Source: Chitinolyticbacter albus
Lineage (GTDB): Bacteria; Pseudomonadota; Gammaproteobacteria; Burkholderiales; Chitinibacteraceae
Length of the DNA stretch: 64,000 nt
Direction: 5' to 3'
Assembly (NCBI RefSeq): GCF_024437655.1
Contig: NZ_JANBVF010000027.1
Coordinates: 1-64,000 of the forward strand
Position 1 is the first letter of the stretch. The number at the start of each line of letters is the position of its first letter. Made by a program: the position numbers and the translations under genes. Positions 6,460 through 38,376 of the stretch are shown piece after piece. The notes below the pieces were generated by a model. That model was not told the origin of the DNA and did no database searches. It saw only the letters and a program-made list of their open reading frames with translations.

Positions 6460-6475
6460 AGCGGCAAGACGGCAG

Positions 6476-6511
6476 CAACAAAAAACCGGCTCCTGGGCCG
6501 GTTTTTTGTTG
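6476..6511. terminator. Bidirectional rho-independent terminator between argS and cysB
   Basis: Perfect 15-base inverted repeat (6476-6490 and 6497-6511) with a 6-base loop. A GC core (ccggc/gccgg) is flanked by A-run and T-run, so it has a U-tract in both directions and fits two convergent genes. Confidence 0.92.
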
Positions 6512-6554
6512 CTTGCAAGGAGAGTGGAGCGCCTGTTGGCCGAGACCTCGATAC

Positions 6555-7502: not shown

Positions 7503-7613
7503 GGCCTTGCCCCCTTATCAAATAACCTGTGCTTCTAAAATCGTAACACATCAGTATAAGGACGAATATTCCCCCTGATATCATCGCCGCTTCTTTCAAG
7601 CAGCAGCGCCAAT

Positions 7614-8393: not shown

Positions 8394-8420
8394 CCGGGAA
8401 CGGTAGTCTGGAGCTTAGCA

Positions 8421-9104: not shown

Positions 9105-9118
9105 GCCGCATCGCAAGC

Positions 9119-9144
9119 AGCCGCCCACAAGGGCGGCTTTTTTT
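9119..9144 (+). terminator. Rho-independent terminator after cysH
   Basis: Stem agccgccc/gggcggct (9119-9126, 9131-9138), 4-base loop, then a run of seven T. It begins 15 bases after the cysH stop. Confidence 0.92.
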
Positions 9145-9215
9145 ATGCGCGCCGGCTTCACGGTAACGTTTCGCTGACTATATTCATTTCATTACTGACA
9201 TGGAGGAAGCGAATC

Positions 9216-10466: not shown

Positions 10467-10477
10467 GGAGGACACCC

Positions 10478-25170: not shown

Positions 25171-25497
25171 TTAGAAGAAGAAAGGCACGAAGACCATGAC
25201 CAGGCAGGCGATCCAGCCGTAGCCGAGCACCCGGGTGGCGCGGCACCAGAACCGGTGGCGCTGGCTGGGCAGCTCGGCGATGTAGGTCGAGCGCAAGAGC
25301 GGCGGCATCACCGTGAGCGCCCTGAATTCCTGGCCGATGTTGCTGTCCATGGCACCGAGAATCTCATCGACGAGCTTGGGGTAGTGGCGCTGGAACGTGT
25401 CGTAGAGCCGCACGCACAGGTAGAGGTAGGCGAGCGAGCCCAGCAGCGTGCCGAGGATGCAGTAGCCGATCACATACTCGATCAGGAACTCACGCAT
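25171..25497 (-). CDS. Small membrane protein, last gene of the PspA/flotillin operon
   Basis: The 108-residue product begins MREFLIEYVIGYCILG. It has two hydrophobic segments, about 5-27 and about 88-106 (GYGWIACLVMVFVPFFF), with a soluble helical middle (TFQRHYPKLVDEILGAM). Start 25497 overlaps the end of the preceding gene by 8 bases. Not recognised as a named family. Its position makes it a probable membrane partner of the operon. Confidence 0.75.
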   Translation of the reverse strand: MREFLIEYVIGYCILGTLLGSLAYLYLCVRLYDTFQRHYPKLVDEILGAMDSNIGQEFRALTVMPPLLRSTYIAELPSQRHRFWCRATRVLGYGWIACLVMVFVPFFF

Positions 25498-25981
25498 GCA
25501 CGGGCTCCCCGGCGGCTTGTGCGGTATCGCCGATGTGTCGCGCCATATAGAGGTAAAGCGCGATATACCAAGCCATGGCAAATAGCTTGAATGCCACGTC
25601 GGACCAGCCCTCGGCGGCGGGATGGAAGGCTGCCAGGATACCGAGCAGCACTCCGATCGCTATGACGCCGACCACCATCACCACCATGAAATGCAGCATC
25701 GCGACAAAGCCGATGCTCAGGTACTTGGCGAGGAACTGTGTGCCTTGCTTGCCCCCATTGGCGTTGAAGCACCACCAGGTGCCCCAGATCGGAATGGCGA
25801 TATTGGTCGCGGTGCCAAGGTAACGCCAGAAACCGCTGCTGTCGTCGGGGTAGTAGCCGATCAGCTCGACTGCGGCGGCGCTGAGCGCAACGTAGATCAA
25901 CAGGTAGAGAAACAGCTGGTACTCGGAGAGGCCCTGCGTGCGCAGGCTCTGCTTCAGCGGCTGGAGTCGCCAGAAATACAT
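25490..25981 (-). CDS. Polytopic membrane protein of the PspA/flotillin operon
   Basis: The 163-residue product starts MYFWRLQPLKQSLR. It has about four transmembrane segments, around 23-42 (FLYLLIYVALSAAAVELIGY), 52-70, 88-118 (LHFMVVMVVGVIAIGVLLGI) and 130-147. There is no catalytic motif and the family is not recognised. It is co-directional with and 23 bases downstream of the LURP-one-like gene, and overlaps the 108-residue membrane protein. Confidence 0.75.
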   Translation of the reverse strand: MYFWRLQPLKQSLRTQGLSEYQLFLYLLIYVALSAAAVELIGYYPDDSSGFWRYLGTATNIAIPIWGTWWCFNANGGKQGTQFLAKYLSIGFVAMLHFMVVMVVGVIAIGVLLGILAAFHPAAEGWSDVAFKLFAMAWYIALYLYMARHIGDTAQAAGEPVHA

Positions 25982-26004
25982 GGGCTACCTCGATTCGTGG
26001 GAGT

Positions 26005-26595
26005 TCAGCCGCGGGCGCGTTCGAGCAACAGCAGCATGGTCAGCGCCAGCGTGATCGCGCGTTCGGGCTCGTCACCCAGTGCTGCCACGCGCTCCAGTGA
26101 GTAGCGGCCTTCGAAAAACGCCGCTTCCTTGCGCAGGCTCATCAGCAACCTGCCGCTGCGATCGTGTACGTCGTATTGCGGATGCAGGAAATAGCCGGAG
26201 AGCATGCCGACCACCGGGATCTCCTCGACGAGGCCATTGACGAAGCGCACCCAGGGGTTGGCTTCGCTGACCTGCAGCGTGCCGAGACTCGGCAGCTCGA
26301 TCTCGTAGCTGGCGCGCCATAGCGAGCGCATGCCGCGCCGGCGCAACTGCGCCAGCCTGCTGCCCGCCTGGTCGGTGACGTTGTAGCTGGCCGAGAAATC
26401 GATGATGCGATCGGCGTCGATGCGATAGAGCGGCCGGGTCTGCGCCTCGTCGGCGAACAGCGTGACCGCTTCCTTGAACTTGAACAGCTTCTGTTTGGCA
26501 TGGAACAGCAGCGCGCCGTCCGCGTCGCGGGCGGACAGCTGCTGGGCGATCGCGAGAACCTTGAACGAAAACTCGACGGGAAAGCGGATGGACAT
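26005..26595 (-). CDS. LURP-one-related (tubby C-terminal-like) protein
   Basis: The 196-residue product has repeated beta-strand patterns of the LOR/tubby-like barrel: FSFKVLAIAQQLSARDADG, LLFHAKQKLFKFKEAVTLFA, RPLYRIDADRIIDFSASYNV and QYDVHDRSGRLLMSLRKEAAF. LOR proteins are lipid-binding or scramblase-like barrels, so a membrane-sensing role fits the flotillin/PspA context, but activity is inferred. It lies 4 bases after the end of the second AAA+ fragment. Confidence 0.75.
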   Translation of the reverse strand: MSIRFPVEFSFKVLAIAQQLSARDADGALLFHAKQKLFKFKEAVTLFADEAQTRPLYRIDADRIIDFSASYNVTDQAGSRLAQLRRRGMRSLWRASYEIELPSLGTLQVSEANPWVRFVNGLVEEIPVVGMLSGYFLHPQYDVHDRSGRLLMSLRKEAAFFEGRYSLERVAALGDEPERAITLALTMLLLLERARG

Positions 26596-26599
26596 GGCT

Positions 26600-27463
26600 T
26601 TACTCCGTGGTGTCGGCCTTGGCCGGCTTTCTGGTGGCGCGATTGAGCGTCGCGTCCATGGTCTTGATCTGCTCGCCGATCTGTTTCACCTTGTCCCAGA
26701 TGTCATGGTCGAGCCGGATCTTGTGCTGCATGGCGCTGATCACCGGGATCAAGGCGTTTTCATAGGCATGGCCCAGCGCCTGCAGCACCGACAGCAGCTC
26801 CGGTTGCGGTGGCACGGTGATTTGCGGCTGATTGCCCCGCAGCGTGTTCTCCAGCGCGACGAGGCCATCGCGCCAGGTGCGGGCCAAGAGCTGGTTGCTG
26901 GTCTCGCCGCTGGCCAAGTGCTTTTCGATCTGCGCGATGGCGGTGGCGATCTGCTGGCCGCTGTCCTGGTTGGCGAGCCGTTCGCTGATGTCGCCAAGCG
27001 CTGCCACGATGTGCGACGCCTGCTGCGCCAGCTTGGTCGCGCCATCCGTATCTGCGCCGCCCATGCGCTTGTGGTGCAGGAAATCGCGCTTGATCTGCGC
27101 CCAACGCTCGGCTTCTTCGCTGCTGAGCGCCCCTTGCAGCTCGGCCAGCTTCAACAGGTTTTCCTCGGCGCCGTGGGTGAGCGTCTGCGCCTCGCCGAGG
27201 TAGTGGTCGCGCACCATGGCGGCGAGCTCGGTCTCGTTCATGATGGCGGAGACCTTGATCGCCAGCTTGGCCATGTTGCGATAACTGCCCTGCAGCTTGA
27301 ATGGCGGCTCGACGCGGTAGGCATCGGCCTGCGCCGCCGAGGCGATATAGGCGGCATTCACCTTCATCAGCACTTCGCGCACGGCAAAGAGCTTTTGCAG
27401 CACGGCGACGATCTCGCCGGCCTCGGCGGCGCTGTAGCCGTGCTTGAAGTCGGTCAGCGGCAC
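26600..27463 (-). CDS. C-terminal part of the giant AAA+ ATPase, separated by an in-frame TAG
   Basis: The 287-residue frame opens at GTG 27463, only five codons after the TAG (27479-27481) that ends the upstream ATPase frame, and is in exactly the same reading frame. Conserved-looking content such as IVAVLQKLFAVREVLMKVN, IASAAQADAYRVEPPFKLQG and GEAQTLTHGAEENLLKLAEL is what I expect to continue the ATPase C-terminus (AAA+ lid and helical tail). It may be made by re-initiation, by readthrough, or not at all. The GTG start has only a weak ribosome site (GGCGG), so the start is uncertain. Confidence 0.75.
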   Translation of the reverse strand: MPLTDFKHGYSAAEAGEIVAVLQKLFAVREVLMKVNAAYIASAAQADAYRVEPPFKLQGSYRNMAKLAIKVSAIMNETELAAMVRDHYLGEAQTLTHGAEENLLKLAELQGALSSEEAERWAQIKRDFLHHKRMGGADTDGATKLAQQASHIVAALGDISERLANQDSGQQIATAIAQIEKHLASGETSNQLLARTWRDGLVALENTLRGNQPQITVPPQPELLSVLQALGHAYENALIPVISAMQHKIRLDHDIWDKVKQIGEQIKTMDATLNRATRKPAKADTTE

Positions 27464-27478
27464 GGCGTCGCCGCCGGC

Positions 27479-30400
27479 CTAGCGCAGGAACAGCTGGATA
27501 TCGGCCGGATCGCGGTTGGCCAGCGGCGCCAGCACCGGGTTGGCGGTGAGGCTGTTCTCGATGTACGACAGCGCGAACAGGTGTTCCTTGCCCGAGAGCA
27601 CATCGCCCAGGTTGTAGATGTCGGCGCGGTTGGCCAGCATGTCCGGAATGCGGAAGGCCTCGCCCGATTCGGTGTATGGGTTGCCGGCCATGACCACGCA
27701 GAAGCGCTTGCCGCGCAGGTCGTAGCTCCTGGCTTCGCCTTTCCAGATGCCCTCGATGCGGCGGGTGCCGTCGCACAGCGCGATAAAGCGTTGCAGGAAT
27801 TCGGGCGAGGTGTGCTGGATGTCGTCGACGTACAGCATCACGTTGTTGCCCATCGCCAGGCCAAAGTTCAGCCGCTCCAGCTCCTGCCGTGCCGCGCTGC
27901 TGTCAGCCTGCGCCGGATCGAGCGAGGTCACCTTGTGGCCCAGCGCCGGGCCGTTCACCCGCACGAAGATCAGGCCCAGCCGGTTGGCGACGTATTCCAT
28001 CAAGGTGGTCTTGCCGTAGCCCGGTGGCGAGATCAGCAACAACAGCCCCATCAGGTCGCCGCGCCGTGATTCGCCGGCGGTGCCGATCTGCTTGGCGAGG
28101 TTGTCGCCGATCAGCGAGAGGTAGACTTCATCGATCAGCTGGTTGCGCACGAAGCCGGACAGCGGCTTGGCTTGGTATTGCTCCAGCCGTAGCGCGCGGC
28201 GCGTGCTGTCGACGATGTCGTGGCGCAAGGCCTGCAGCGTATTGAACGCGGGCACGACCACCACATCGTGCTGCGCCAGCTTGGCGCGGAAGGTGTTGAG
28301 ATCGATCGCGAGCGCGCCGTCCCGGATGGTTGGATGCTGGCCGACGAGGCCGCTCACGGCACCGGTCAGCGCCACGTTCACGCGCTGGCGCGGCAGCTCG
28401 GTCAGCAACAGCGCCGCCGCTTCAGTTGCGTAGCTGGCGGGCAGTTGCTGCTGCGCGGCCACCGCCTCGCACCAGGCGCAGGCTAGCTGCCAGCGCTCGT
28501 GCAGCGATCCGGTCTTGAGGCCATCGTGCAGCGTGCCGATCGCGCCGCGCCGTTCCAGCTGCTGGTTCAGCGCATCGACCAGTGTCTGCGCATCGGCGCT
28601 GCTGGCCCATTCGGCGCGGCCGGTGGTCAGCTCGGCCAACAGATAGTCGACGATGGCCTGCCGCAGCGCCACATCGAGCGCAAAGCCCTCGTGTTCGGTG
28701 AATTCGGCGAGCCGGGTGGCAAGGCTGTCCGCCAGCGTGAGCAGCGCCTTGTCCTGGCCGAATTCGTCACGGATGCGCCGTGCGTTCTCGGCACGGATGC
28801 GCCAGCCGGCCTTGTCGTTCTCCCAGATGCCGTGGGCCCAGAACAGCGCGGCGAGGCCGCGCGGTAGCGGGCCGAAACGCAGCAGCCCGGCCTCGCGGTC
28901 CATCGGCAGCAGCGTGGCGAGCAGCGCGGCGGCGTCCACGTCGTGCACGCCCTTCTGGTAGCCATCGTGGTAACGGGTGGCCGCGTAGTCGCGCACCAGC
29001 GGCAGCAGGCCGGTGTCCGCCAGCCGCGCCGCTTCCAGCGCGGCTGGATCGAGCTCGCCGGCGTGCATCGCGCACAGCATGCGCCAGGCCAGGTATTCGC
29101 CGCGGTAGACGGCCTCGGTTTCCGATACCAGCTGTTGTGCCCACCAGGGCTTGAGCGCGATCAGGCGCTCGTCGGCGAGCGGCTCGAAGTAGTCGGTGCC
29201 GGTCAGGTGCAGCGAGAGCGCGTCATCGCGATGGACCAGCGTCAGATCGAACGGCTGGGTGGTGACGGTGAAGGTGTGGCGGCCCAGGCGGATGCCGTCG
29301 GCGCTGAACAGATCGCCCTTGTCGCGCTGGATGCGCACCGCGTTATCGCGCAGCGTCTTGATCCGCGCTTCCAGCGTATCGGCCTGCACCGTGTCGTTCA
29401 GCTGGCGCAGGTCGCCAATCAGGCCGCGCAGCTTCTGCACCATGGCGTCGGCGGCGAAGTAGCTGTGCAGCTCTTCGGGCGAAGTGAAGCGGGTGAGGCG
29501 CTTCTCGATGCTCTCGACGATGCGGCGCGCGGCGGCGGCCAGCGATTGCGCGCGTTGCTGGCGCGCGTCGAGCAGGGCCTGGCGGCGGCTGGCGAATGCT
29601 TCGTACACCGCCTCGCGCTTGGCGACGATGTCGGCGAGGAAGGTCTCCTGGCTGCCAAAGCGCGTTTCCAGCTCCTCCAGCTGTGTCAGGAGCTGGGTCA
29701 GCGCCTCGTCGCACTTTTCCGGGCTGTCGGCGAGATCGATGGCATTGGCCACGCTTTGGCCAAAGAGCTTGAACTGCGCGCCGAACTCGGCGCTGGCTTC
29801 CTTCACCGCCAGGCTGTCGCGTCGTGCCCGGGCGGCGGCGCGCACCTGGTTCAGCCGGGCGTAGACCTCGCCGACATCGTCGAGAATCTGCGTGCGCACG
29901 GTGGCATCGCCACTTTCCAGCCCGGCCAGAAGCTCGGTCAACAGATCGAGCCCGCTGGCGGTGGTGTCGAGTGCCGAGAGTTGCGGCGTCAGCGCGGCGA
30001 CGGTAGCTATGCCCGGCAGCTCGGTGGCGACCTTTTCCAGTTCGGCATGGTATTGCGTGAACGACTGCGGCCCGGCAAGAAAGCGGATGGTCTCGTCGGA
30101 CAGCCGCTTTTGCTCGGCGGCGAGCCCGTCGTCGATCGCCTGCAGCCTGGCGCGATCGATGTAACGCTGCTCGGAGAGGCCCAGCAGCTCGCCGCGCAGC
30201 GCGCGCAAGCGCGCCAGCGCGTCGACGAACTGCTGCGGCGACTTCCAGATGGTGGCGGCGATGTCGGTGAGCAGTGCCTTGTTCTGCGTTTCCATCTTTG
30301 CCAGCGCCGTATCGGCGGCGTGGCGGATGGCGGTGACCTTGTCGAACTCGTCGAGCGTCAGCCTTGCGGTGTCGGCGATGGTCTTGAGCGCGGTGGCCAG

Positions 30401-31855
30401 CTGGCCGGCCTCGGCGCTGTCCAGCCAGAAATAGCTGTCGAGCAAGCGGGTGATGGCGCGGTTCAGGTCTTCATAGTGCAGCCGACTCGGGCTTTGTTCG
30501 CGCGTGGCGCGGGCGATGCCATAAAGCTCGGAGATGCCGCGCACCAGTTCGCCATTGCCGATGCGACCGTAGAAGCCGGCCGGCGGCGCGCTGGCGGCGT
30601 GCTCGTCACTGCAGAACGGCGTATTCCACAGCTGCATGGCGTGGGTGCGGGTCGGCTCTTCGCCTTCGGCGTTGAACAGCAGCACGCGGCCATCGTCGAA
30701 GCGCGCGTAGCCGTTGCTGAACAGCGGGGAGGACAGCGTCTTTTCGATCAGGTTGTACGCCAGCAGCGCCAACCGGCCCGCTTCGGGCTCGTAGAAGGCA
30801 TAGAGCACGTCCTCGCCGTTGGGCGAGCGGATCATGCGCTTGAACTTCATGCCGGCCACATCGTCGGCGAAGGTCTTGTACTCGCCGCTCTGCAGGTAGC
30901 AGCCGCCGGGGAACACGATGCCGTGATCCTCGGGCAGCTGCACGCAGGAGGCACCGATGCCGTCGATACGCGTCACCTGCTGGGTGCGGGTATTGAAGAC
31001 CAGGTAACGGTAGGCGGTTTCGCGGTAGGGCAGGATCTTGAGCAGGATCAGCGTGCCCAGCCGTGCGTAGCTGATGTCGGAGTCGGTCAGCGACTGGCTG
31101 CCGTCGTCGACCGGCTCGCTGTAGATGCCGCGGCCGACATCGGTATTGTTCTCGACCTTGATCGTCAGGTCGCCACCGATGGTTTCGACGAACAGCGTGT
31201 CGAGGATGTTGACGTGCGGGTGCTTGCCGTTGATGTGGTGCTCGCGCCCGGTGGCGATCCATTCGAAATCGTGCGATGGCGGCAGCACGATGTCGCGCTC
31301 GCCGCGGTTGTCGATGTACTGCACGCTGCCATCGCGATTCAGCTGCCAGCGGAACACGCGCAGATCACCGGCGCGCACGCCGATCTGGAACGCGGCCAGT
31401 AGTTTGTCGCCGGTGACGCGCAGCTGGCGCAGGTTGGCGTTCTTGTAATACGCGTAAAGCTCGCGAAAATCGCTGGTGAAGCGCGGATCATCGAGGAAGG
31501 TGCCGGTCGCGGGCACCGCCTCGAGCTCGACCGCCTCGCCTTCGCCGGTCAGCCGGTACAGGCTGAACACGTCGTCGATCCGCGTTTCCTTCCTGAGGCC
31601 GATGTAGACGTTGTAACCGAACAGCAGCAGCTCGCCGACGCGCACGATATCGCGTGCCACGCAGTTGTTCTCGGTACGGGCGCGGGTGCGGGCGATCAGC
31701 CGCAGCTCGGCGCGGCCGAACGCGGCCAGCCGTGCCTGGTTCAGCGTGCCAGCCTGCACCAATAGTGCTTCACCCTGCTGCGACAGCCGCTGCTTCAACA
31801 GCTCGTAGCCGCCGCTGGCAGCGATGTCCTGATCGATTTCCTGGGTGGTGCTCAT
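27479..31855 (-). CDS. Giant AAA+ ATPase ('DNA repair ATPase'-type) with N-terminal beta-rich and coiled-coil regions, stopped by an in-frame TAG
   Basis: The 1,458-codon frame has an N-terminal region (about 1-430) rich in beta strands, of the kind annotated DUF3686. A long helical/coiled-coil middle follows (about 470-830). The C-terminal AAA+ module has Walker A PPGYGKTT (about 1277-1284), Walker B VMLYVDDIQ, sensor 1 VVMAGNPYT and an arginine-finger region IPDMLANRADIYNL. The frame ends FLR then TAG, while the protein clearly continues in frame at 26600-27463. Read through, it would total about 1,750 residues. Start ATG 31855 follows a TTG. The cellular role is unproven; the DNA-repair label is only an annotation habit. 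Context suggests a membrane-associated remodeller. Confidence 0.85.
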   Translation of the reverse strand: MSTTQEIDQDIAASGGYELLKQRLSQQGEALLVQAGTLNQARLAAFGRAELRLIARTRARTENNCVARDIVRVGELLLFGYNVYIGLRKETRIDDVFSLYRLTGEGEAVELEAVPATGTFLDDPRFTSDFRELYAYYKNANLRQLRVTGDKLLAAFQIGVRAGDLRVFRWQLNRDGSVQYIDNRGERDIVLPPSHDFEWIATGREHHINGKHPHVNILDTLFVETIGGDLTIKVENNTDVGRGIYSEPVDDGSQSLTDSDISYARLGTLILLKILPYRETAYRYLVFNTRTQQVTRIDGIGASCVQLPEDHGIVFPGGCYLQSGEYKTFADDVAGMKFKRMIRSPNGEDVLYAFYEPEAGRLALLAYNLIEKTLSSPLFSNGYARFDDGRVLLFNAEGEEPTRTHAMQLWNTPFCSDEHAASAPPAGFYGRIGNGELVRGISELYGIARATREQSPSRLHYEDLNRAITRLLDSYFWLDSAEAGQLATALKTIADTARLTLDEFDKVTAIRHAADTALAKMETQNKALLTDIAATIWKSPQQFVDALARLRALRGELLGLSEQRYIDRARLQAIDDGLAAEQKRLSDETIRFLAGPQSFTQYHAELEKVATELPGIATVAALTPQLSALDTTASGLDLLTELLAGLESGDATVRTQILDDVGEVYARLNQVRAAARARRDSLAVKEASAEFGAQFKLFGQSVANAIDLADSPEKCDEALTQLLTQLEELETRFGSQETFLADIVAKREAVYEAFASRRQALLDARQQRAQSLAAAARRIVESIEKRLTRFTSPEELHSYFAADAMVQKLRGLIGDLRQLNDTVQADTLEARIKTLRDNAVRIQRDKGDLFSADGIRLGRHTFTVTTQPFDLTLVHRDDALSLHLTGTDYFEPLADERLIALKPWWAQQLVSETEAVYRGEYLAWRMLCAMHAGELDPAALEAARLADTGLLPLVRDYAATRYHDGYQKGVHDVDAAALLATLLPMDREAGLLRFGPLPRGLAALFWAHGIWENDKAGWRIRAENARRIRDEFGQDKALLTLADSLATRLAEFTEHEGFALDVALRQAIVDYLLAELTTGRAEWASSADAQTLVDALNQQLERRGAIGTLHDGLKTGSLHERWQLACAWCEAVAAQQQLPASYATEAAALLLTELPRQRVNVALTGAVSGLVGQHPTIRDGALAIDLNTFRAKLAQHDVVVVPAFNTLQALRHDIVDSTRRALRLEQYQAKPLSGFVRNQLIDEVYLSLIGDNLAKQIGTAGESRRGDLMGLLLLISPPGYGKTTLMEYVANRLGLIFVRVNGPALGHKVTSLDPAQADSSAARQELERLNFGLAMGNNVMLYVDDIQHTSPEFLQRFIALCDGTRRIEGIWKGEARSYDLRGKRFCVVMAGNPYTESGEAFRIPDMLANRADIYNLGDVLSGKEHLFALSYIENSLTANPVLAPLANRDPADIQLFLR

Positions 31856-31909
31856 CAACGATGACCTTGTAGACGGGGCAAGGGGTAGGCTCCGGGCTGA
31901 TACCGGCGA

Positions 31910-32458
31910 TCAGTGTGGCGCGGGGGCGGTTGTCAGCAAGAAAGCCAGCAGCACGGCGCGCTGCGGATGGCCTGCCAGCCAGGCGCGCACGCGTTGCGCT
32001 TCGGCGTAGTCCACATCGCCCAGCCGTGCGCGCCAGGTGGCATCGCGCCGCTCGCGCGATTCGCTCTCGCGCACCTCGCGCTGGCCGCGATCGCTGAGGA
32101 TGTGCAACAGCGTGCGGGTCAAACCGTGTGCACGCAGCGCCGGCCACTCGTCGCCATCGAGCCAGACCTTGCGGCAGGCGCCGCAGCGATCGAGCCTGAA
32201 TTTCAGATGCCCGGCCACGCGGTATTTCTGCAGCAACTGCGTACAGTCCGGGCAGCGCAGCGCGCGCGGCGAGGCTTCCTCGATCAGTTCGGCTGCTTTG
32301 CTCACCGCTTCGTCCGGTAGCGGCGGCGCCTGGTCGAGCCAGTGGCGATAGTCGCCGAGCCCGAGCCAGGTGCCCTGGCAGGTGGGGCACTGCTCGGCGA
32401 CGAGCCCGGGCTCGATGGATTCGGGACGGGTTTCGGTATTGCAGCTCAGGCAAAGCAT
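31910..32458 (-). CDS. TFIIB-type zinc-ribbon protein
   Basis: The 182-residue product has two zinc ribbons. The first is CLSCNTET ... CPTCQGTWL (about 3-31); the second is CPDCTQLLQKY ... CGACRKVWLDGDEW (about 69-106). The consensus CxxC...CxxCxGxWLD is that of the zf-TFIIB family. The charged helical C-terminus (RDATWRARLG) ends in a short hydrophobic stretch (AVLLAFLLTTA). Such proteins commonly accompany membrane-stress genes; the function is unknown. It lies 54 bases before the giant ATPase. Confidence 0.8.
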   Translation of the reverse strand: MLCLSCNTETRPESIEPGLVAEQCPTCQGTWLGLGDYRHWLDQAPPLPDEAVSKAAELIEEASPRALRCPDCTQLLQKYRVAGHLKFRLDRCGACRKVWLDGDEWPALRAHGLTRTLLHILSDRGQREVRESESRERRDATWRARLGDVDYAEAQRVRAWLAGHPQRAVLLAFLLTTAPAPH

Positions 32459-32473
32459 GCCCGCTCCTTGGTT

Positions 32474-32743
32474 TTACAGTTCGAAAGTGTTCTTGCGTTT
32501 CAAGATGCGGATCAGCGCATTGCTGCGCCTGGATTGCCGCCAGAGCTCGGCGCCGAGCACGGCGATCAGCAACCAGGGCGTCTGGTCGCGGATTGCCGGC
32601 ACGAACTGCGAACCGAGAAAACCCAGCGCGGCTGCGCAGGCCACCACGGCGCCCGGCAGCAGCGAGCACGTGTAGCTCAGTGTTTGCCGATCCAGCGCAT
32701 CACGCTCGGTGATCGCCACGAGTGGGTTGGGGGCGTGGGGCAT
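32474..32743 (-). CDS. Small two-TM membrane protein
   Basis: The 89-residue product starts MPHAPNPLVAITERD (start 32743). The 25-codon upstream extension runs into the flotillin gene and is discounted. Two hydrophobic segments, about 26-47 (LPGAVVACAAALGFLGSQF) and 55-70 (PWLLIAVLGAELW), are followed by a basic tail. Not recognised. It lies between the flotillin and the zinc-ribbon gene in the operon. Confidence 0.7.
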   Translation of the reverse strand: MPHAPNPLVAITERDALDRQTLSYTCSLLPGAVVACAAALGFLGSQFVPAIRDQTPWLLIAVLGAELWRQSRRSNALIRILKRKNTFEL

Positions 32744-32756
32744 CGTCGGCGCTCGC

Positions 32757-34829
32757 TTACTTGCGACCCAGCGAGCCCAGCAGCTTTTGCAGCGCATCGT
32801 GTGTTTCGGCGTTGCCATCCTTCATCACGCGTTGCAGCAGCGCGGCGGCGGACAGGTTCTGCAGCTCGTCGGCCGATTGGCCGAGGCCACCAAGCAGCTT
32901 GCCGGCGTCGTCGATCAGGTTGCGCTCGCCGGCGCGATGCGGCGCGGTGGCAAGCTGCAGCGTTTCGCTCTTGCCGATGGCGCCGTCGATGGCCTTGCCG
33001 ATGCCTAGCGCGTTGACGAAGCGCTGGAAGTAGTCGCCCTCGCCACCGACGATGTCGATGCGCGCATTGCCCAGCGCCTTGCCCAGCACCTCGGCCTGTT
33101 CGCGGGCGATGCTGGTGTTGGCGTCGATGGCCTTGAGCGTCTGCACGTGGGCGTTGTCGAGCCGCATGCGGAATTCCTCGTGGGCGCGGGTGTCGTCGCT
33201 CATCGCCTTCATTGCTTCGAACTTCGAGTGCAGGCCCTTGGCTTCGGCGGCAAACTTGGCTTCGATCGCGTGCGCGTCGGCGGTCTTGACGTTCACGTCC
33301 GCCAGGCCCAGCTTCTCGCGGCCCGATGCTTCGGCTTCGAGCTTGAGGCGCAGCGCCTCGGCTTCGGCCTCGCCCATGCGGCTGACCGCGTCGGCGTCGG
33401 CCATCTTCACCTTGGCGGCAACCATGCCGTCCTTTTCCTTGGCATCGGCCGTCACCAGCATCACCTTGGCGTCCGCGAGGCCCGGTGCGGCGGACAGTGC
33501 TTCGACGCCTTCGGCCTCGCGCTTCTTGGCCTCGGCTTCCTTCTCGGCAACCTTGAGCTTGGCGTCGGCCAGCGTGGTTTCCTCGACGGCCTTGTGCTTG
33601 GCGCGGCGCTCCTCGGCTTCGGCCGCTTTCACGTCGACAACCAGCTTCTCTTCCGCGCGGGCTTCGGCGGCGATCACCGTGGCCTTGCGGGTGCGATCGG
33701 CCTCGGCAACCACGCGCAGTTCCTTGATTGCTTCTTCCTGCTCGGCCACCGTGCGCTCGACCACGATGCGCTCGCGGATCACGTCGGCGATGGCCTTCTT
33801 CTCGATCTCGATTGCCTTGTCGGCCTCGATGCCTTGCAGCGCCACTTCGCGCTCGCGGTCGACCACTTCCAGATCGCGGGCACGGGTGACTTTTTCTTCT
33901 TCGATGGCGACGGCGCGCTTGCGGTTGTTCTCCGCCACTTCCTTCTCGCGCTGCATGTTTTCCTGCTGCACGGCGATCAGCTGATCGGCCTGGATACGGG
34001 CGATCTCGGCCTTGGCGCGTTCCTCGGCGGCGACACGGTCGGATTCGGCCTGCTCGCGGGCGCGCACGGTGGCGATTTCGCGCTGCTGCCGGGCTTCGGC
34101 GTCGGCCTGCTGGCGTTGCAGTTCGAGGATGGTTTCGGCGGTCTCGACATCCTTCTTCTTGATCTGCATCTGCTCGTCACGCTGCAGCTGGTTGGTGGTG
34201 ACGTGCTGCACGGCGGTGAGCTCGGTGATCTTGCGGATGCCCTGCGCGTCGAGGATGTTGTTGCGATCGAGCTTGTCCATCGGCGTCTGCTCGAGGTAAT
34301 CGATCGCCGCGTCTTCCAGCACATAGCCCGAGAGGTTGTCGCCGATCTGGCGGATGATCTCGTCGCGGAACTTGTCGCGCGCCATGTAGAGATCCTCGAA
34401 GTCCATCGCCTTGCCGACGGTCTTCAGCGCCTCGGCGAACTTGGCGGCGAACAGCTCTTCCAGCGTCTCCTGGCTGGAGGCGCGCTCGCAACCGACGGTC
34501 TGCGCCACGCGCAGCACGTCCTCGGCGGTCTTGTTCACGTGCACGAAGAAGGTGACCTCGATATCGGCACGGATGTTGTCGCGACAGATCAGGCCGGCGT
34601 TGCCCGAGCGCTTGATGACGATGGTCTTGAGCGAGATGTCCATCAGTTCCATCTTGTGGATCACCGGGTAGACCATGCGGCCGGTAAAGGTGACCTCGGG
34701 CTCGGCGCGCAAGGTGTTCACGATCATGCCGCGGCCCTGTTCGACCTTGTGATAGAACTTCACGAACAGCAAGAAGGCACTGAAGATAAAGAAGGCGGCG
34801 ATGACGATCGCCACGAGAATCGAAGTCAT
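32757..34829 (-). CDS. yqiK: Flotillin-like SPFH/Band 7 membrane protein (YqiK type)
   Basis: The 690-residue product has one N-terminal TM (ILVAIVIAAFFIFSAFLLFV, about 4-23). The SPFH domain follows (about 30-220), with YHKVEQGRGMIVNTL and DISLKTIVIKRSGNAGLICR. A very long Ala/Glu-rich coiled coil (about 220-570) carries repeated KAEAEA-type heptads, and the C-terminus is helical. Flotillins scaffold membrane microdomains, and YqiK is the enterobacterial homologue. It is placed 91 bases after the YqiJ-like gene, the same partnership as in E. coli yqiJK. Start 34829 is at the TM; the upstream in-frame extension has no family similarity. Confidence 0.92.
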   Translation of the reverse strand: MTSILVAIVIAAFFIFSAFLLFVKFYHKVEQGRGMIVNTLRAEPEVTFTGRMVYPVIHKMELMDISLKTIVIKRSGNAGLICRDNIRADIEVTFFVHVNKTAEDVLRVAQTVGCERASSQETLEELFAAKFAEALKTVGKAMDFEDLYMARDKFRDEIIRQIGDNLSGYVLEDAAIDYLEQTPMDKLDRNNILDAQGIRKITELTAVQHVTTNQLQRDEQMQIKKKDVETAETILELQRQQADAEARQQREIATVRAREQAESDRVAAEERAKAEIARIQADQLIAVQQENMQREKEVAENNRKRAVAIEEEKVTRARDLEVVDREREVALQGIEADKAIEIEKKAIADVIRERIVVERTVAEQEEAIKELRVVAEADRTRKATVIAAEARAEEKLVVDVKAAEAEERRAKHKAVEETTLADAKLKVAEKEAEAKKREAEGVEALSAAPGLADAKVMLVTADAKEKDGMVAAKVKMADADAVSRMGEAEAEALRLKLEAEASGREKLGLADVNVKTADAHAIEAKFAAEAKGLHSKFEAMKAMSDDTRAHEEFRMRLDNAHVQTLKAIDANTSIAREQAEVLGKALGNARIDIVGGEGDYFQRFVNALGIGKAIDGAIGKSETLQLATAPHRAGERNLIDDAGKLLGGLGQSADELQNLSAAALLQRVMKDGNAETHDALQKLLGSLGRK

Positions 34830-34920
34830 GGTTGCTCCCTGATAACGACAAGACGGCGGTGTGGGCCTGCTGCACAAGCAGGTCGATGAGTTATTGCGGG
34901 TGAGAGATGGAAAGGGCGGT

Positions 34921-35541
34921 TCAGGAGTCGTCGATGGCGGCGATGGTGTACACGCTGCTCGCCGCGTCGTAATCGACGATGACGGCGCGCGAGCCCTTGC
35001 CCAGCGCGTTGGGCATCTCGGCGCGCACGCGGATATTGATACCGGCGCCACCGGTGGCCACCTCGGCACGGCCGAAGCGCTCGGTCACTTCCAGCGTCAG
35101 CACCTTGCAGGCGCTGCCGACCAGTGCCGGGTTGCTGACCGCGTTGTGCGAGACGAACAGCCCGCGCATCGGCCGCAACACGGCGGCGGTGATGGGCAGC
35201 GCGATGGCGAAACTGACCAGCAGCACCACCACGCCGGCCACGTAGCGCAGCAGGTCGGGCAGCCACGTCAGCAGGTATTCGCCGGCGAGGCAGGACAGCA
35301 GCCAGCCGATCAGCGTGATCAGGCTGACCACGATGGAAAACGGCACCGCGCCCAGCCCCAGCGCCATCAACTTGCCCGAAAGATCGCCCAGCCCATGGGC
35401 ATCGCTGTCCAGATCGAGCGCATCCACGTCGACAAATCCTGCCAGCGCAGCGATCCAGTACAGCAGCACCACGCCGAGCAGCACCGTCCAGATGGCGGTG
35501 GGGAAGCTGCTGATGGTGTCGAAGAAACGGCCCATGTTCAT
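34921..35541 (-). CDS. yqiJ: OB-fold membrane protein of the YqiJ family
   Basis: The 206-residue product has TMs about 13-35 (FPTAIWTVLLGVVLLYWIAA), 62-88 and 95-118. The C-terminal soluble beta-barrel (about 125-200) has VGSACKVLTLEVTERFGRAE and NALGKGSRAVIVDYD, the NfeD/OB-like fold. OB-fold membrane proteins of this kind typically pair with SPFH proteins, here the next gene. Met at 35541 or 35535 could be the start. Confidence 0.88.
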   Translation of the reverse strand: MNMGRFFDTISSFPTAIWTVLLGVVLLYWIAALAGFVDVDALDLDSDAHGLGDLSGKLMALGLGAVPFSIVVSLITLIGWLLSCLAGEYLLTWLPDLLRYVAGVVVLLVSFAIALPITAAVLRPMRGLFVSHNAVSNPALVGSACKVLTLEVTERFGRAEVATGGAGINIRVRAEMPNALGKGSRAVIVDYDAASSVYTIAAIDDS

Positions 35542-35560
35542 GTCCTAGGTTGCAACGTCG

Positions 35561-35839
35561 TTACGGCGAGGTGCTGCGCCACAGCGGATTCTTGCAGCGC
35601 TCGCAGCAATGCAGGCGCCAAGTTGAAGTCGGGCCGAACACGCCGGTGTCCAGGATTTCTGCACTGCCACAATGCACGCAGTGTGCTCGGGCACTGGCTG
35701 CGATATCCGGGTAGCGGGTCAGGTACTCGGCCTGGGTCGGAAAGCGATGCCACCAACCGGCGCGTACGGAGCGGAACTGCCAGCCAAACAGCAGCAGGGG
35801 CAAGAGGATCACGATGGCCAGCATCATCGCAGTGCTCAT
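35561..35839 (-). CDS. Small membrane-anchored zinc-ribbon protein
   Basis: The 92-residue product has an N-terminal hydrophobic segment (MMLAIVILLPLLLFGWQF, about 5-22), then a putative zinc ribbon CVHCGSAE ... CCERC (about 54-83). The ATG lies directly next to the stop of the upstream gene (35840). Not assigned to a named family. It is part of the PspA/flotillin operon. Confidence 0.7.
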   Translation of the reverse strand: MSTAMMLAIVILLPLLLFGWQFRSVRAGWWHRFPTQAEYLTRYPDIAASARAHCVHCGSAEILDTGVFGPTSTWRLHCCERCKNPLWRSTSP

Positions 35840-36187
35840 CTAGCGTTCTCCTCGCCCTGGGTTCTCGACACGCCGCGCGAACGCAAGCAGTTCCCGCAGT
35901 ACCCGCTCCTTGATTTCCAGCCGCTGCTCGGGCGTGAGCCCGAAACGCTGACCGAGCGCGGCGTAATCCTCTTCGGACAGCGTGACGGTGAGCCGTGGCC
36001 GCTTGGGGCGGCTGGTGACCGCGAGCCCGAGCACCTGGCGGATCTGGTCCGAGTTGCTGAGGTTGTTGTCGAAGGCGGCGCGGCGCACCGCCTGCAACAC
36101 CTCCTCTTCTACATCGAACGCCACCTGCACCGCGTGGATGGCCGGCGCCGAGCTTTCCCAGCGCGGCGGCAGCTTCTTCTGGCTCAT
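35840..36187 (-). CDS. Probable DNA-binding protein with two ribbon-helix-helix-like segments
   Basis: The 115-residue product has two segments that each look like a beta strand followed by two helices: AIHAVQVAFDVEEEVLQAVR ... SNSDQIRQVLGL (about 16-55), and RLTVTLSEEDYAALGQRFG ... IKERVLRELLAFA (about 65-105). This is the layout of a tandem ribbon-helix-helix protein; I infer it from pattern only. An RHH autorepressor would explain the four-half-site operator upstream of the operon (37361-37396). It overlaps the preceding pspA stop by 4 bases. Confidence 0.6.
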   Translation of the reverse strand: MSQKKLPPRWESSAPAIHAVQVAFDVEEEVLQAVRRAAFDNNLSNSDQIRQVLGLAVTSRPKRPRLTVTLSEEDYAALGQRFGLTPEQRLEIKERVLRELLAFARRVENPGRGER

Positions 36188-36894
36188 TCGATGCGCTCAC
36201 TGCCCGCGTCGCGCCGGGCCTTCAGCCGCGCCAGCACCGCCTCCTTGCGGTTGGCGTCCTCGCCGATGCCGGCGGCGGCAAGCTTGCGTTCCAGCGCCTT
36301 GTTGCCGAACTCGGCGTCGAGTTCCTCGGCGGCCTTCATCCGGTCGGCCATCAGCGTGTGGCGCTCCTTGATCCGCTCCAGCGATTCGCGCGCGCCGCCC
36401 AGTTTGGAGGCGCCGCTGCCCATGCTTTGCGAAATCGATTCGGTGGCGCGGTAGACGCTCTCGGTGGTCTTGGCCACCGCCAGTTCGCGCTCGTGTTCAC
36501 GCACGCGGGTTTCGGCCTGGCGGATCAGATCCTTGAGGTTGACGATGTGCTGGGCGAAATCGGCCTGTGCGCGTTGCTGTGCGGTGTGCTCGGCCTCCAG
36601 TTCGGCGATGCGGCTGGCGACGTCGCCGGCGAGGTGGTCCTCAGCCTTGTCGAGTGCGGCGAGCGCGTGTTCTTCGAAGCGGGTGATTTCCCGCTCCAGC
36701 CGCTCGATCTCGCGTTCGGCGGCCTTTTCCTGAGCCATGACCAGCGTGAGATCCTGCTTGGCGCGAGCAAGCGCGGCCTTGGATTCGTGGATCTCCTGCT
36801 CGTAGATACGGGTGGCGTTGGCGTCGACGACGCTTTCGCCGATTTCGCGCGCGCTGCCTTTGAGCGCGGTGAGGATCTTGCTGAAGACGGACAT
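36184..36894 (-). CDS. pspA: PspA/IM30-family membrane-remodelling protein
   Basis: The 236-residue product begins MSVFSKILTALKGSAREIGE, an amphipathic N-terminal helix. A long coiled coil follows (about 30-150), including IYEQEIHESKAALARAKQDL and AEREIERLEREITRFEEHAL. It ends with a shorter helical tail (NKALERKLAAAGI). It resembles E. coli YjfJ more than classical PspA. ESCRT-III-like IM30 proteins oligomerise on stressed inner membranes. Start 36894 is chosen on the family N-terminus. It is second in the operon, 16 bases after the DUF2170 gene. Confidence 0.9.
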   Translation of the reverse strand: MSVFSKILTALKGSAREIGESVVDANATRIYEQEIHESKAALARAKQDLTLVMAQEKAAEREIERLEREITRFEEHALAALDKAEDHLAGDVASRIAELEAEHTAQQRAQADFAQHIVNLKDLIRQAETRVREHERELAVAKTTESVYRATESISQSMGSGASKLGGARESLERIKERHTLMADRMKAAEELDAEFGNKALERKLAAAGIGEDANRKEAVLARLKARRDAGSERIE

Positions 36895-36910
36895 CTCGTT
36901 CTCCTTGCGG

Positions 36911-37324
36911 TCAGTGCAGGTAGTCGGCCATGGCTTCGAGGGCATCGACGGCGTTGTCGCTCAGCGCGAGCAGATCCTGCGCCAGATCGTCGGCGCCGGC
37001 ATTGCGTGCCAGTGCGCCATAGAGCAGGTACTTGTCGCCGATGCGGCCGAACGACGACAGCGGTATCGCCACGTTCAGATCGAGCATCGCTTCGAGCAGG
37101 GCAGTGCGACGCGCGCTGGCAATGTCAGCTTCGGTCCATAGGTAGCAAATACACAACAGCTGGCTGTCAGCTTCGGTGATGAAGATCGGCAGCTCCTCGC
37201 GCCCGCTGATCGCGACCTTGAAGACCACGACCTCGCCCGGTATGCGCTCGAGCTCGAACGCACCCAACTGGCCGGCAAGCCGTTGACCTGCCTCGGAAAT
37301 CCGGTGTTGCAATGCTGTGTCCAT
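36911..37324 (-). CDS. yjfI: DUF2170 (YjfI-like) protein, first gene of the operon
   Basis: The 137-residue cytoplasmic protein includes RIPGEVVVFKVAISGREELP (about 28-47), ICYLWTEADIASARRTALLE and LDLNVAIPLSSFGRIGDKYL, which match DUF2170. In E. coli yjfI precedes the PspA-like yjfJ, the same order as here. Start 37324 lies 7 bases after an acgaggag ribosome site on the minus strand. Family function is unknown. The promoter/operator lies 25-75 bases upstream. Confidence 0.88.
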   Translation of the reverse strand: MDTALQHRISEAGQRLAGQLGAFELERIPGEVVVFKVAISGREELPIFITEADSQLLCICYLWTEADIASARRTALLEAMLDLNVAIPLSSFGRIGDKYLLYGALARNAGADDLAQDLLALSDNAVDALEAMADYLH

Positions 37325-37350: not shown

Positions 37351-37379
37351 AACATAAATGCCTCGACATATAATGTCAA
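37351..37379 (-). promoter_or_regulatory. Sigma70-type promoter of the DUF2170-pspA-flotillin operon
   Basis: On the minus strand a perfect -35 TTGACA (37374-37379) is separated by exactly 17 bases from a -10 TATGTT (37351-37356). Expected transcription start is near 37344, giving a leader of about 20 bases before ATG 37324. The -35 lies inside the palindromic operator. Confidence 0.75.
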
Positions 37380-37396
37380 GACATTTTATGTCGAGG
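37361..37396. promoter_or_regulatory. Operator-like palindrome with four GACAT/ATGTC half sites
   Basis: 36 bases symmetric about 37378/37379, with 17-base arms and one mismatch pair. Half sites are GACAT (37365-37369), ATGTC (37373-37377), GACAT (37380-37384) and ATGTC (37388-37392), spaced 3, 2 and 3 bases. It covers the -35 and part of the spacer, so a bound protein would block RNA polymerase. The protein is unknown; the RHH-like product at 35840-36187 is a candidate. Confidence 0.75.
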
Positions 37397-37584: not shown

Positions 37585-38376
37585 TCAGTGGGTGACGCTC
37601 TGACGACCGCGCGGGCGAAAGTAGCCGGCGTCGTCGTAGAAGTGCGCATCCTGCTCGGGCCACCAGCCGGGAATGCCCAAATAGGGCAGGGGTGGCAGCT
37701 GGCGCGGCGTACGCAGCTCGCCAGCATCGATCAACATGGCGAGCTCGCCGTCGAGCAGGGCGAGACGTTCGGTGAGCGGCAGCCGGAAAAAGCCCGGGGT
37801 GACCCGGATCGGCCAGCACTTGCCGGTGAGACCGACAAAGGGTGCGAGCAGGTTCTCGAACGTGGCGTGGCCGAACACCAGCGCGTCGATCTGCCGACCC
37901 CAGGTCGCGCGTTGCCGGTTGAACAACGCATCCCATTCATGCTCGATGAGCAGCGCCAGCAGCTCGGGGTTGCTGTAGGGCAGGATCAGCCCGCATTCGT
38001 CGAACAGCGTGGCGGCGTCGCGCACCGGGCCGCGCGGGCCTTGCGTGGCGGCGGGCAGCTGCAGGTAATGCAGCGCGTTGAGCGCAGCCTTGGTGCGCGG
38101 GTAGCTGTGCCAGACCAGCGCATTGAAGCAGTCGTGCCAGTTGTCGCGCGTGGCGACGCGGCCGAGCTCGAAGATTTCGGCTTCGTAGTAGCGATCGAGC
38201 GTCTCGGGGTCGACACAGCGCAGCACGTGCCCAGACTGGGTATGCACGGGCGGCAGCCTCGCCCAATCGGCGAGCCGCGGCACCGTGGGCAATTGCTGCA
38301 GCAGCGGCGCCAGCAATGCAAAGGCCGGATGCTGAATGGCATCCGGCCACGGTAGACCACCGATGGACCCGCTCAC
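37585..38376 (-). CDS. DUF3025 family protein
   Basis: The 263-residue cytoplasmic protein contains the DUF3025 core: YYEAEIFELGRVATRDNWHD, FNALVWHSYPRTKAALNALH (about 84-103), DECGLILPYSN and ALVFGHATFENLLAPFVGLTG. Function is unknown. It starts with GTG at 38376, whose first base overlaps the last base of the TAG of the upstream PEBP-like gene, so the pair is probably translationally coupled. Confidence 0.85.
   Translation of the reverse strand: MSGSIGGLPWPDAIQHPAFALLAPLLQQLPTVPRLADWARLPPVHTQSGHVLRCVDPETLDRYYEAEIFELGRVATRDNWHDCFNALVWHSYPRTKAALNALHYLQLPAATQGPRGPVRDAATLFDECGLILPYSNPELLALLIEHEWDALFNRQRATWGRQIDALVFGHATFENLLAPFVGLTGKCWPIRVTPGFFRLPLTERLALLDGELAMLIDAGELRTPRQLPPLPYLGIPGWWPEQDAHFYDDAGYFRPRGRQSVTH

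What the first reader, a model, noticed from the sequence alone, without database searches (positions are those of the whole stretch)
25171..37324. Thirteen-frame PspA-flotillin-giant AAA+ operon: a candidate membrane-surveillance machine
One strand and one promoter appear to drive DUF2170, PspA/IM30, an RHH-like protein, two zinc-ribbon proteins, a YqiJ OB-fold protein, a YqiK flotillin, a giant AAA+ ATPase, a LURP-one lipid-barrel protein and three small membrane proteins. The separate pairs (yjfI-yjfJ, yqiJ-yqiK) are known from E. coli, but here they are joined with an ATPase that could remodel PspA or flotillin assemblies, much as Vps4 acts on ESCRT-III. The small membrane and zinc-ribbon members look undescribed.
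Basis: partly seen in the sequence, partly recalled or inferred. Interest (0 to 1): 0.65.

Follow-up and report, generated by a model that had tools for sequence, protein, structure and literature searches.

The report
Membrane-stress operon with its own repressor
This is a known type of bacterial membrane-protection gene cluster, but one of its small unnamed genes appears to be the switch that controls it, which would make the control of a class of membrane-stress responses testable; its motor gene is interrupted by a stop codon in this strain.

Summary
The minus-strand operon is real: 12 closely spaced genes. Its core, DUF2170-PspA-YqiJ-flotillin-AAA+ ATPase, is colinear in 56 of 96 loci surveyed. 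That core is published (Ravi 2024; P. aeruginosa bac operon), as is the ESCRT/Vps4 analogy. The ATPase gene here has an in-frame TAG where 8 of 8 relatives read a sense codon. Its AAA module resembles MoxR proteins more than Vps4.

The new part is control. The small third gene (r, tandem ribbon-helix-helix-like) goes with a palindrome, GACATNNNATGTC, at the DUF2170 promoter: 24 of 24 testable r-bearing loci, 0 of 32 without r; in a partly overlapping second sample, 12 of 12 against 2 of 22. In this genome the motif occurs only at this promoter, twice, around the -35 box. In four r-bearing genomes of three families it also precedes HtpX-like, NfeD-SPFH and PspA-PspC genes. The 32 r-lacking loci instead carry an N-terminal extension on DUF2170 (weakly antitoxin-like), 27 with a different palindrome; the crystallised BacA chain lacks that extension. 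Caveat: r changes once on the flotillin tree, so those counts are not independent; the regulon sites are the stronger evidence. No binding was measured.

The parts
37365..37392 (-). twin operator: two GACATNNNATGTC palindromes 15 nt apart, core of a 36-bp near-palindrome
   Evidence: only two exact sites in the 3.92-Mb own genome; palindrome score 13 against a maximum of 6.5 in 30 shuffles; same twin arrangement in 9 genomes including this one, among the loci held
37351..37379 (-). sigma-70-type promoter-like site TTGACA-17-TATGTT, -35 box inside the operator
   Evidence: 10 of 12 matches; the scan alone is not above shuffles; sequence
36911..37324 (-). DUF2170 / YjfI / BacA-like CesT-Tir-type protein, short form; ATG at 37324 fits the promoter better than GTG at 37348
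   Evidence: PF09938 2.2e-24; start inferred from the -10 position and a GAGGAG motif
36184..36894 (-). PspA/IM30 (YjfJ/BacB-like), ESCRT-III superfamily
   Evidence: PF04012 4.2e-35; matches solved Vipp1/PspA chains at 2.5e-5; the only PF04012 match in the genome at E 0.001
35840..36187 (-). gene r: proposed DNA-binding autoregulator, tandem ribbon-helix-helix-like
   Evidence: co-occurs with the operator; model aligns best to relaxosome, single-chain Arc and AvtR structures (weak, Z 5.6-6.7)
35561..35839 (-). small protein: one TM-like segment plus PaaD-type zinc ribbon
   Evidence: PF23451 3.4e-7; hydrophobic segment 1-19; in 4 of 96 loci
34921..35541 (-). YqiJ/BacC-like membrane protein
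   Evidence: hhalign to E. coli YqiJ 93.9%, E 1.6e-7; no Pfam hit; 88 of 96 loci
32757..34829 (-). YqiK/BacD-like flotillin
   Evidence: hhalign to E. coli YqiK 99.9%, E 2e-34; 92 of 96 loci
32474..32818 (-). 114-aa protein, one weak TM-like segment, overlaps the flotillin gene by 62 nt; weakest gene call
   Evidence: 53% identity over 103 aa to L014; no tblastn hit at 1e-3 in the same-genus relative L011
31910..32458 (-). TFIIB-type double zinc-ribbon protein
   Evidence: PF13453 2.8e-11, two stretches; 24 of 96 loci
27482..31855 (-). DUF3686-DUF7902-AAA+ ATPase, part before the stop (1458 codons)
   Evidence: PF12458 4.8e-196, PF25472 2e-26, PF00004 5.4e-7
27479..27481 (-). in-frame TAG, codon 1459, inside the MoxR-like AAA module
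   Evidence: sense codon in 8 of 8 relatives; model residue 260, with the alignment to MoxR chains running to about 377
26600..27478 (-). rest of the ATPase frame, still conserved (93% identity to L011)
   Evidence: dN/dS 0.107 against 0.181 before the stop
26005..26595 (-). LURP-one-like 196-aa protein
   Evidence: PF04525 hit below cut-off in 4 of 4 homologues, the only hit in 3; 4 of 96 loci
25490..25981 (-). 163-aa protein with three TM-like segments
   Evidence: in 2 of 96 loci
25171..25497 (-). 108-aa protein with two TM-like segments
   Evidence: in 4 of 96 loci; in L012 it sits between the zinc-ribbon gene and the ATPase

Best explanation
This is a Psp/bac-type membrane-protection operon. 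SHOWN: a conserved core of DUF2170 (CesT/Tir-type), PspA, YqiJ, flotillin and a DUF3686 ATPase; an accessory gene r immediately after pspA; and, in r-bearing operons, a GACATNNNATGTC site at the DUF2170 promoter. INFERRED: r is the operon's repressor. It binds the two palindromes that surround the -35 box and blocks transcription. DUF2170 and PspA, its immediate neighbours, carry the membrane-stress signal: PspA moving to damaged membrane changes its contact with DUF2170 and thereby releases r. The products then act at the inner membrane. PspA polymers bind and remodel lipid, YqiJ and flotillin form a membrane scaffold, and the MoxR-like ATPase with its large N-terminal region resets or activates one of these assemblies. 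In the surveyed core operons without r, an extension fused to DUF2170 (as in BacA) does r's job at a different palindrome. In this genome the ATPase step is probably lost or impaired by the stop codon, unless the stop is a sequencing error or is suppressed.
For: Core colinear in 56 of 96 loci. Motif near the called DUF2170 start in 23 of 25 r-bearing and 0 of 32 r-lacking loci. The two misses are a mis-called start (L018, twin site 66-81 nt upstream of the true start) and a contig that begins at the gene (L053). Second sample, 34 DUF2170 loci from 299 genomes, three of them also in the first: 12 of 12 with r beside them, 2 of 22 others. Thirteen of 15 genomes with r have it within 2 kb of DUF2170. 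Only two exact sites in the own genome. G126 has DUF2170-PspA-r and YqiJ-flotillin-ATPase in separate loci, and both carry the motif. Other sites in r-bearing genomes precede M48 peptidase genes (HtpX-like; 3 genomes), NfeD-SPFH (3), PspA-PspC (1) and PH-domain genes (1); 0 of 17 sites in r-lacking genomes (21 searched, 11 with a site) lie near homologues of these genes. Published: bacA insertion raises BacB-BacF 6.1- to 13.5-fold and RT-PCR shows one operon (PMC10948618; abstract and passages).
Against: On the flotillin tree r is gained or lost only once among these loci, so the large counts are one evolutionary contrast. The model of r is low-confidence (pLDDT 69, pTM 0.40); no significant PDB hit by Foldseek, VIA-align Z under 7, and unrelated Pfam models are reached by as many or more r members than RHH models. 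G283 has the motif but no r in the 6.4 kb read. Five of the nine r-bearing genomes scanned with the narrower pattern have exact sites only at DUF2170. In G256 and G309 the separate YqiJ-flotillin-ATPase locus lacks the motif. In the second sample 15 of 34 DUF2170 loci have neither r nor an extension, so the r-or-extension rule holds only for the ATPase-linked set (partly by eye). No binding, expression or repression was measured; direction of control and the signalling role of DUF2170 and PspA are inferred.
Confidence: 0.65

Rival explanations
1. One reading: the ATPase is a Vps4-like disassembly motor for PspA or flotillin polymers.
For: PspA belongs to the ESCRT-III superfamily (one search matches solved PspA/Vipp1). 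The ATPase gene lies beside flotillin in most loci. Ravi 2024 proposes ATP-dependent membrane remodelling comparable to Snf7-Vps4 for PspA-AAA+ associations (passages). Archaeal Vps4 aligns at Z 12.4.
Against: MoxR-family NorQ and CbbQ align better (Z up to 16.7, first ten rows). Pfam finds DUF3686 and no MIT domain in the N-terminal part. The acidic pair of Walker B is Asp-Asp in 50 of 50 sequences. DUF3686 goes with YqiJ and flotillin (88 of 96) more often than with PspA (57 of 96) on its strand, so flotillin is the likelier client.
Confidence: 0.25
2. The palindrome is bound by some other regulator, and r merely travels with this operon lineage, for instance as a structural or unrelated DNA-binding protein.
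For: Presence of r maps to a single change on the flotillin tree; G283 and G381 have the motif without a detected r.
Against: r lies within 2 kb of DUF2170 in 13 of 15 genomes that have it, including genomes without a DUF3686 hit. G381's contig ends before r would be reached. The extra sites recur at the same genes in three families of r-bearing genomes and at none of 17 sites from r-lacking ones.
Confidence: 0.22
3. In this strain the operon is decaying: the stop codon is a true inactivating mutation and the system is on its way out.
For: In-frame TAG where 8 of 8 relatives have sense codons; DUF3686 is patchy among relatives (9 of 120 genomes, own included), so gain and loss must be frequent.
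Against: Purifying selection in all nine genes compared with L011, also after the stop (dN/dS 0.06-0.34; 0.107 after the stop). No second stop in the ATPase frame. The assembly is a draft of 84 contigs, so a base error is possible.
Confidence: 0.3
4. The neighbours are unrelated genes with separate transcripts.
For: Accessory genes (zinc ribbons, LURP-like, small membrane proteins) are found in only 2-24 of 96 loci.
Against: Overlapping or near-abutting genes, conserved order, and no exact motif elsewhere in the genome; the homologous bac operon is a single transcript by RT-PCR.
Confidence: 0.06

Closest known systems
CesT/Tir-PspA + band-7/flotillin + AAA+ + YqiJ operon class (Ravi et al. 2024, PMC11237479)
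   Same: Same five core genes and a membrane-assembly/remodelling reading (section 19 read in full; passages)
   Different: The words operator and HtpX occur 0 times in its main text (supplements not read). Its RHH mention in section 19 concerns the second operon class. r, the TFIIB-type zinc-ribbon protein and the LURP-like gene as members of this operon were not seen in the section read
Pseudomonas aeruginosa bac operon bacABCDEF (PMC2587700, PMC10948618)
   Same: DUF2170 (BacA) and PspA (BacB) first, then a short NfeD and an SPFH protein (PA14_16160, PA14_16180; PMC13086221 passages); single transcript; osmotic-shock, biofilm and rhamnolipid phenotypes
   Different: Identity of bacE and bacF was not given in the passages I saw. 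The Pseudomonas loci surveyed lack r and have long DUF2170; the crystallised BacA chain 8Q8O has 146 residues and lacks the extension, whereas the NCBIfam BacA model has 206 positions. I did not read the P. aeruginosa genome itself. A sigma-54 site is proposed there; I found no significant one upstream of the window operon (p 0.215)
E. coli yjfIJKLMC and yqiJK (NC_000913)
   Same: Homologues of four core proteins
   Different: Two separate loci; E. coli is among 14 control genomes with no DUF3686 match; no r gene annotated in the two stretches
MoxR-family AAA+ ATPases (NorQ, CbbQ)
   Same: Best structural match of the AAA module
   Different: Giant N-terminal region (DUF3686, DUF7902); flotillin/YqiJ neighbours instead of the VWA partner known for NorQ and CbbQ (recalled; NorD also appears in the titles)
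Tandem ribbon-helix-helix proteins (single-chain Arc, AvtR; fold class recalled)
   Same: Strand-helix-helix twice in one chain; best VIA-align rows; palindromic site at its own promoter
   Different: No Pfam RHH model over its cut-off; low-confidence model, Z under 7

Membership tests
CesT/Tir-PspA-flotillin-AAA+ operon class (Ravi 2024) | DUF2170 + PspA + band-7/flotillin + YqiJ + AAA+ in one operon | tested here: met
CesT/Tir-PspA-flotillin-AAA+ operon class (Ravi 2024) | intact ATPase | tested here: not met
   in-frame TAG; relatives intact. Sequencing error not excluded
bac operon (P. aeruginosa) | DUF2170-PspA-YqiJ/NfeD-flotillin order with downstream genes | tested here: met
   same order in the Pseudomonas loci L050, L052, L057 and others; paper passages
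bac operon (P. aeruginosa) | sigma-54 promoter (proposed in the papers) | tested here: inconclusive
   crude consensus scan: window p 0.215; 6 of 57 loci at p <= 0.05, two of the six being one record
ESCRT-III superfamily (PspA) | PspA/IM30 domain over full length | tested here: met
   PF04012 positions 1-218 of 220; solved PspA/Vipp1
Vps4-type AAA+ | AAA fold closest to Vps4 | tested here: inconclusive
   Vps4 Z 12.4, MoxR up to 16.7; only chains pre-ranked by Foldseek were compared
MoxR AAA+ | AAA fold closest to MoxR members | tested here: met
   first ten rows are NorQ/CbbQ; by Foldseek E-value an MCM chain ranks first, CbbQ and NorQ second and third
MoxR AAA+ | cognate VWA partner (recalled) | not tested
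   no VWA family among the Pfam hits of the operon proteins, but no targeted search was made
Flotillin/YqiK | homology to YqiK | tested here: met
   99.9%, E 2e-34; BLAST 26% over 501 aa
YqiJ/NfeD-like | homology to YqiJ | tested here: met
   93.9%, E 1.6e-7 with the deep alignment; not detected with 7 sequences
Ribbon-helix-helix regulator (r) | RHH fold | tested here: inconclusive
   first six rows are F-relaxosome chains, single-chain Arc and AvtR, Z 5.6-6.7; Pfam RHH models below cut-off in 2 (FitA-like) and 1 (RHH_1) of 18 members, while unrelated models reach up to 5
Ribbon-helix-helix regulator (r) | binds a palindromic operator at its own operon | not testable with these tools
   only co-occurrence shown
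LURP-one-related | PF04525 above cut-off | tested here: not met
   12.8-16.3 bits against 24.5, 4 of 4 homologues

The most novel reading that the evidence does not exclude
r is the founding member of a family of membrane-stress repressors that takes the place of PspF. It controls PspA, flotillin/NfeD-SPFH and HtpX-like protease genes as one regulon through GACATNNNATGTC. DUF2170, a secretion-chaperone-type protein, is its stress sensor: it is either paired with r or fused to its own DNA-binding domain, as in BacA, where the crystallised construct left that domain out.
Probability: 0.43. Interest if true: 0.75.

Novelty: new variant of a known kind. Interest (0 to 1): 0.58.

Why it matters
PspA systems occur across bacteria, but how most of them are controlled is unknown outside a few models (PspF, Lia, ClgR; recalled, also named in PMC11237479). 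A named gene, an exact 13-bp site and a list of target promoters make this testable with one gel shift and one reporter. It would also offer an explanation for why loss of BacA raises the other Bac proteins, and it suggests that the crystallised BacA construct lacks a DNA-binding part. It ties PspA, flotillin/SPFH and an HtpX-like protease, usually studied apart, into one predicted response.

Tried and rejected
Anti-phage defence: only weak PADLOC matches (best: LmuB 5e-5 to the ATPase, 1.6e-4 to PspA, ten proteins), not taken as membership. Sigma-54 promoter as in the bac operon: not supported for the window. Plasmid spread of r: no match at E 1e-5 among 72,556 plasmid records. PDB searches by sequence with the YqiJ, flotillin, LURP-like and r alignments gave nothing usable. 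In the 60 rows shown, the AAA alignment matched mainly the Walker A stretch of p97-, Cdc48- and RuvB-type proteins. Similarity between r and the N-terminal extension of long DUF2170: none found. Fisher p values (5.6e-14; 1.7e-7) should not be taken at face value, because the flotillin tree shows one change. Genome-wide counts of the motif say little by number alone: 200 of 299 genomes have at least one site, and G379 has six without r. The 13 of 15 count for sites in r-bearing genomes is circular because its queries came from those sites; its 0 of 17 control and the recurrence across genomes carry the weight. The regulon was read from 16 of 18 sites away from DUF2170 (two forward-only sites were not fetched); that some first genes are envelope proteins was judged by eye where Pfam had no hit. 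The second palindrome (WTNACATGTNAW) was defined on the same loci it was counted in; in the second sample it is present in 2 of 2 extension loci found by pattern but in none of five more with a variant extension found by eye. Statements that something is not in print rest on searches in an open-access library only.

Full report
OBSERVATION. The minus strand from 37324 down to 25171 holds 12 genes with gaps of -62 to +91 nt: DUF2170, PspA, a 115-aa gene (r), a TM-plus-zinc-ribbon protein, YqiJ, flotillin, a 114-aa protein, a TFIIB-type zinc-ribbon protein, a DUF3686-AAA+ ATPase, a LURP-one-like protein and two small membrane proteins. Pfam supports DUF2170, PspA, the two zinc ribbons and the ATPase. 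YqiJ, YqiK and YjfI homology was settled by deep profile comparison. The LURP-one label is weak but consistent.

A BROKEN ATPASE. The ATPase frame stops at a TAG (27479-27481, codon 1459 from ATG 31855) and resumes in the same frame to 26600. Eight of 8 relatives have a sense codon there and open frames of 1733-1842 aa. Sequence after the stop is still under purifying selection (dN/dS 0.107 against 0.181 before it, one pairwise comparison), so the lesion is recent or a sequencing error. In the folded model (mean pLDDT 79.7) the stop falls at residue 260, inside the MoxR-like module that spans about 30-377.

CONSERVATION. DUF3686 is uncommon: 9 of 120 genomes among relatives and 8 of 299 of the phylum, own genome included in both. 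DUF2170 occurs in 34 of the same 299, and all 8 DUF3686 genomes have it; in 4 of the 8 the two are in one locus. On the ATPase strand: flotillin 92, YqiJ 88, DUF2170 57, PspA 57, all five together 56, TFIIB-type zinc ribbon 21, r 26. Some loci are cut by contig ends. Named carriers range from Andreprevotia and Variovorax to Pseudomonas, Pseudoalteromonas and Gilliamella and, for the YqiJ-flotillin-ATPase part, actinobacteria and a planctomycete MAG. In four distant genomes the DUF2170-PspA pair and the YqiJ-flotillin-ATPase unit lie apart, with r near the pair in three of them. So the operon joins two modules.

KNOWN. Ravi et al. 2024 (PMC11237479, section 19 read in full; passages) describe this core and suggest chaperone-like, ESCRT-like membrane assembly. 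The bac operon of P. aeruginosa is its studied relative: one transcript by RT-PCR, bacA insertion raising BacB to BacF 6.1- to 13.5-fold, BacA crystal structure of CesT/Tir type (PMC10948618; abstract and passages; PMC2587700, passages). Its third and fourth genes are called a short NfeD and an SPFH protein (PMC13086221, passages).

THE ATPASE. The best structural matches of the AAA module are the MoxR proteins NorQ and CbbQ (Z 14.4-16.7, first ten rows); archaeal Vps4 scores 12.4. By Foldseek E-value an MCM chain ranks first, CbbQ and NorQ second and third. Walker B is Asp-Asp in 50 of 50 sequences. A disassembly or activation role remains likely, but Vps4 kinship is not supported.

THE CONTROL ELEMENT. 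Upstream of DUF2170 lies a 36-bp near-palindrome made of two GACATNNNATGTC sites 15 nt apart, with the -35 box TTGACA between and into them. The same twin form occurs in nine genomes including this one. In the whole own genome the motif occurs only there. Among 57 DUF2170-bearing loci (58 minus the duplicate L039) the motif lies near the start in 23 of 25 with r and 0 of 32 without. The two misses are a mis-called start (L018; twin site 66 and 81 nt before the true start) and a contig that begins at the gene (L053); hence 24 of 24 testable. In the second sample, 34 DUF2170 loci from 299 genomes, three of which overlap the first set: 12 of 12 with r beside them, 2 of 22 others. Of those two, G381's contig ends before r would be reached, and G283 is a true exception.

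LOCI WITHOUT r. All 32 r-lacking DUF2170 loci of the first set have a conserved N-terminal extension that none of the r-bearing rows show. It resembles the MazE-like antitoxin model weakly (E 0.1-0.25 in 5 of 6 scanned, below cut-off). Twenty-seven of 32 carry another palindrome, WTNACATGTNAW; six of 25 r-bearing loci match that pattern too, each time overlapping the GACAT site. The solved BacA chain 8Q8O starts after this extension, while the NCBIfam BacA model is 206 positions long. In the second sample the rule is looser: my script found 20 of 34 loci with neither r nor extension; by eye five of these carry a variant extension, without the second palindrome, which leaves 15, among them G381 and G283.

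A WIDER REGULON. Nine r-bearing genomes were scanned for GACATDWWATGTC. In G277, G269, G158, G256 and G267 sites lie only at DUF2170. In G126, G329, G401 and G323, 16 of 18 other sites were examined: 14 lie upstream of or at the start of envelope-type genes and 2 inside unrelated coding sequence. Recurring targets are an M48 peptidase, HtpX-like (G329, G401, G323), NfeD-SPFH (G126, G329, G401) and a lipoprotein-like gene without Pfam hit, in G126 followed by a DUF350 gene (G126, G329). Single ones include, in G126, an operon with PspA and PspC, a lone SPFH gene, and YqiJ-flotillin-ATPase with the divergent zinc-ribbon gene; and in G329 two PH-domain genes and a 120-aa protein. In 21 r-lacking genomes (11 with a site), 0 of 17 sites lie near homologues of these genes.

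LIMITS. On the flotillin tree the r-bearing and r-lacking loci are separated by one change, so the counts above are far from independent. The evidence that escapes this is the recurrence of the site at unrelated promoters in r-bearing genomes of three families, and the split loci of G126. The model of r is low-confidence (pLDDT 69), though its best alignments are F-plasmid relaxosome chains (probably TraY, recalled), single-chain Arc and AvtR. Pfam gives r no family. No binding or expression was measured.

MECHANISM. Most likely r represses the operon through the twin operator, DUF2170 and PspA relay membrane stress, and the products bind, scaffold and remodel the inner membrane. The site and its company are shown; binding, direction of control and the signal route are inferred.

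VERDICT. As an operon: already described, here in a variant form. As a regulatory system: probably new, and directly testable.

Noticed in passing
L030 (G126), ATPase gene at 5417-10510: A second DUF3686 gene is interrupted (TGA; two frames). Together with the window, 2 of 96 surveyed loci gave two ATPase frames.
   Followed up: partly
L061:15180-16460 and L083:15267-15938: Next to the ATPase, mostly just downstream, a PLD-like family recurs in 14 loci and a rhomboid family in 13 loci (one representative of each scanned).
   Followed up: partly
L014:5607-6256 and L049:7229-7703: YqiJ gene split into two frames in two relatives.
   Followed up: no
PDB 8Q8O versus L026:13486-14106: The solved BacA chain (146 aa) aligns to residues 64-205 of a 206-aa homologue, so the crystallised form lacks the N-terminal extension.
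   Followed up: partly
window 32474-32818: The 114-aa gene's only Pfam hit is PspG at E 0.18, far from significant.
   Followed up: no
G283:C22 (L169): GACATNNNATGTC upstream of DUF2170 without a detectable r gene in the 6.4 kb read.
   Followed up: partly
L061:9599-9886, between flotillin and ATPase: Small 95-aa protein without a Pfam family over cut-off; related genes in 3 loci.
   Followed up: no
window 37585-38376: DUF3025 gene upstream on the same strand, also upstream in the same-genus relative L011.
   Followed up: no
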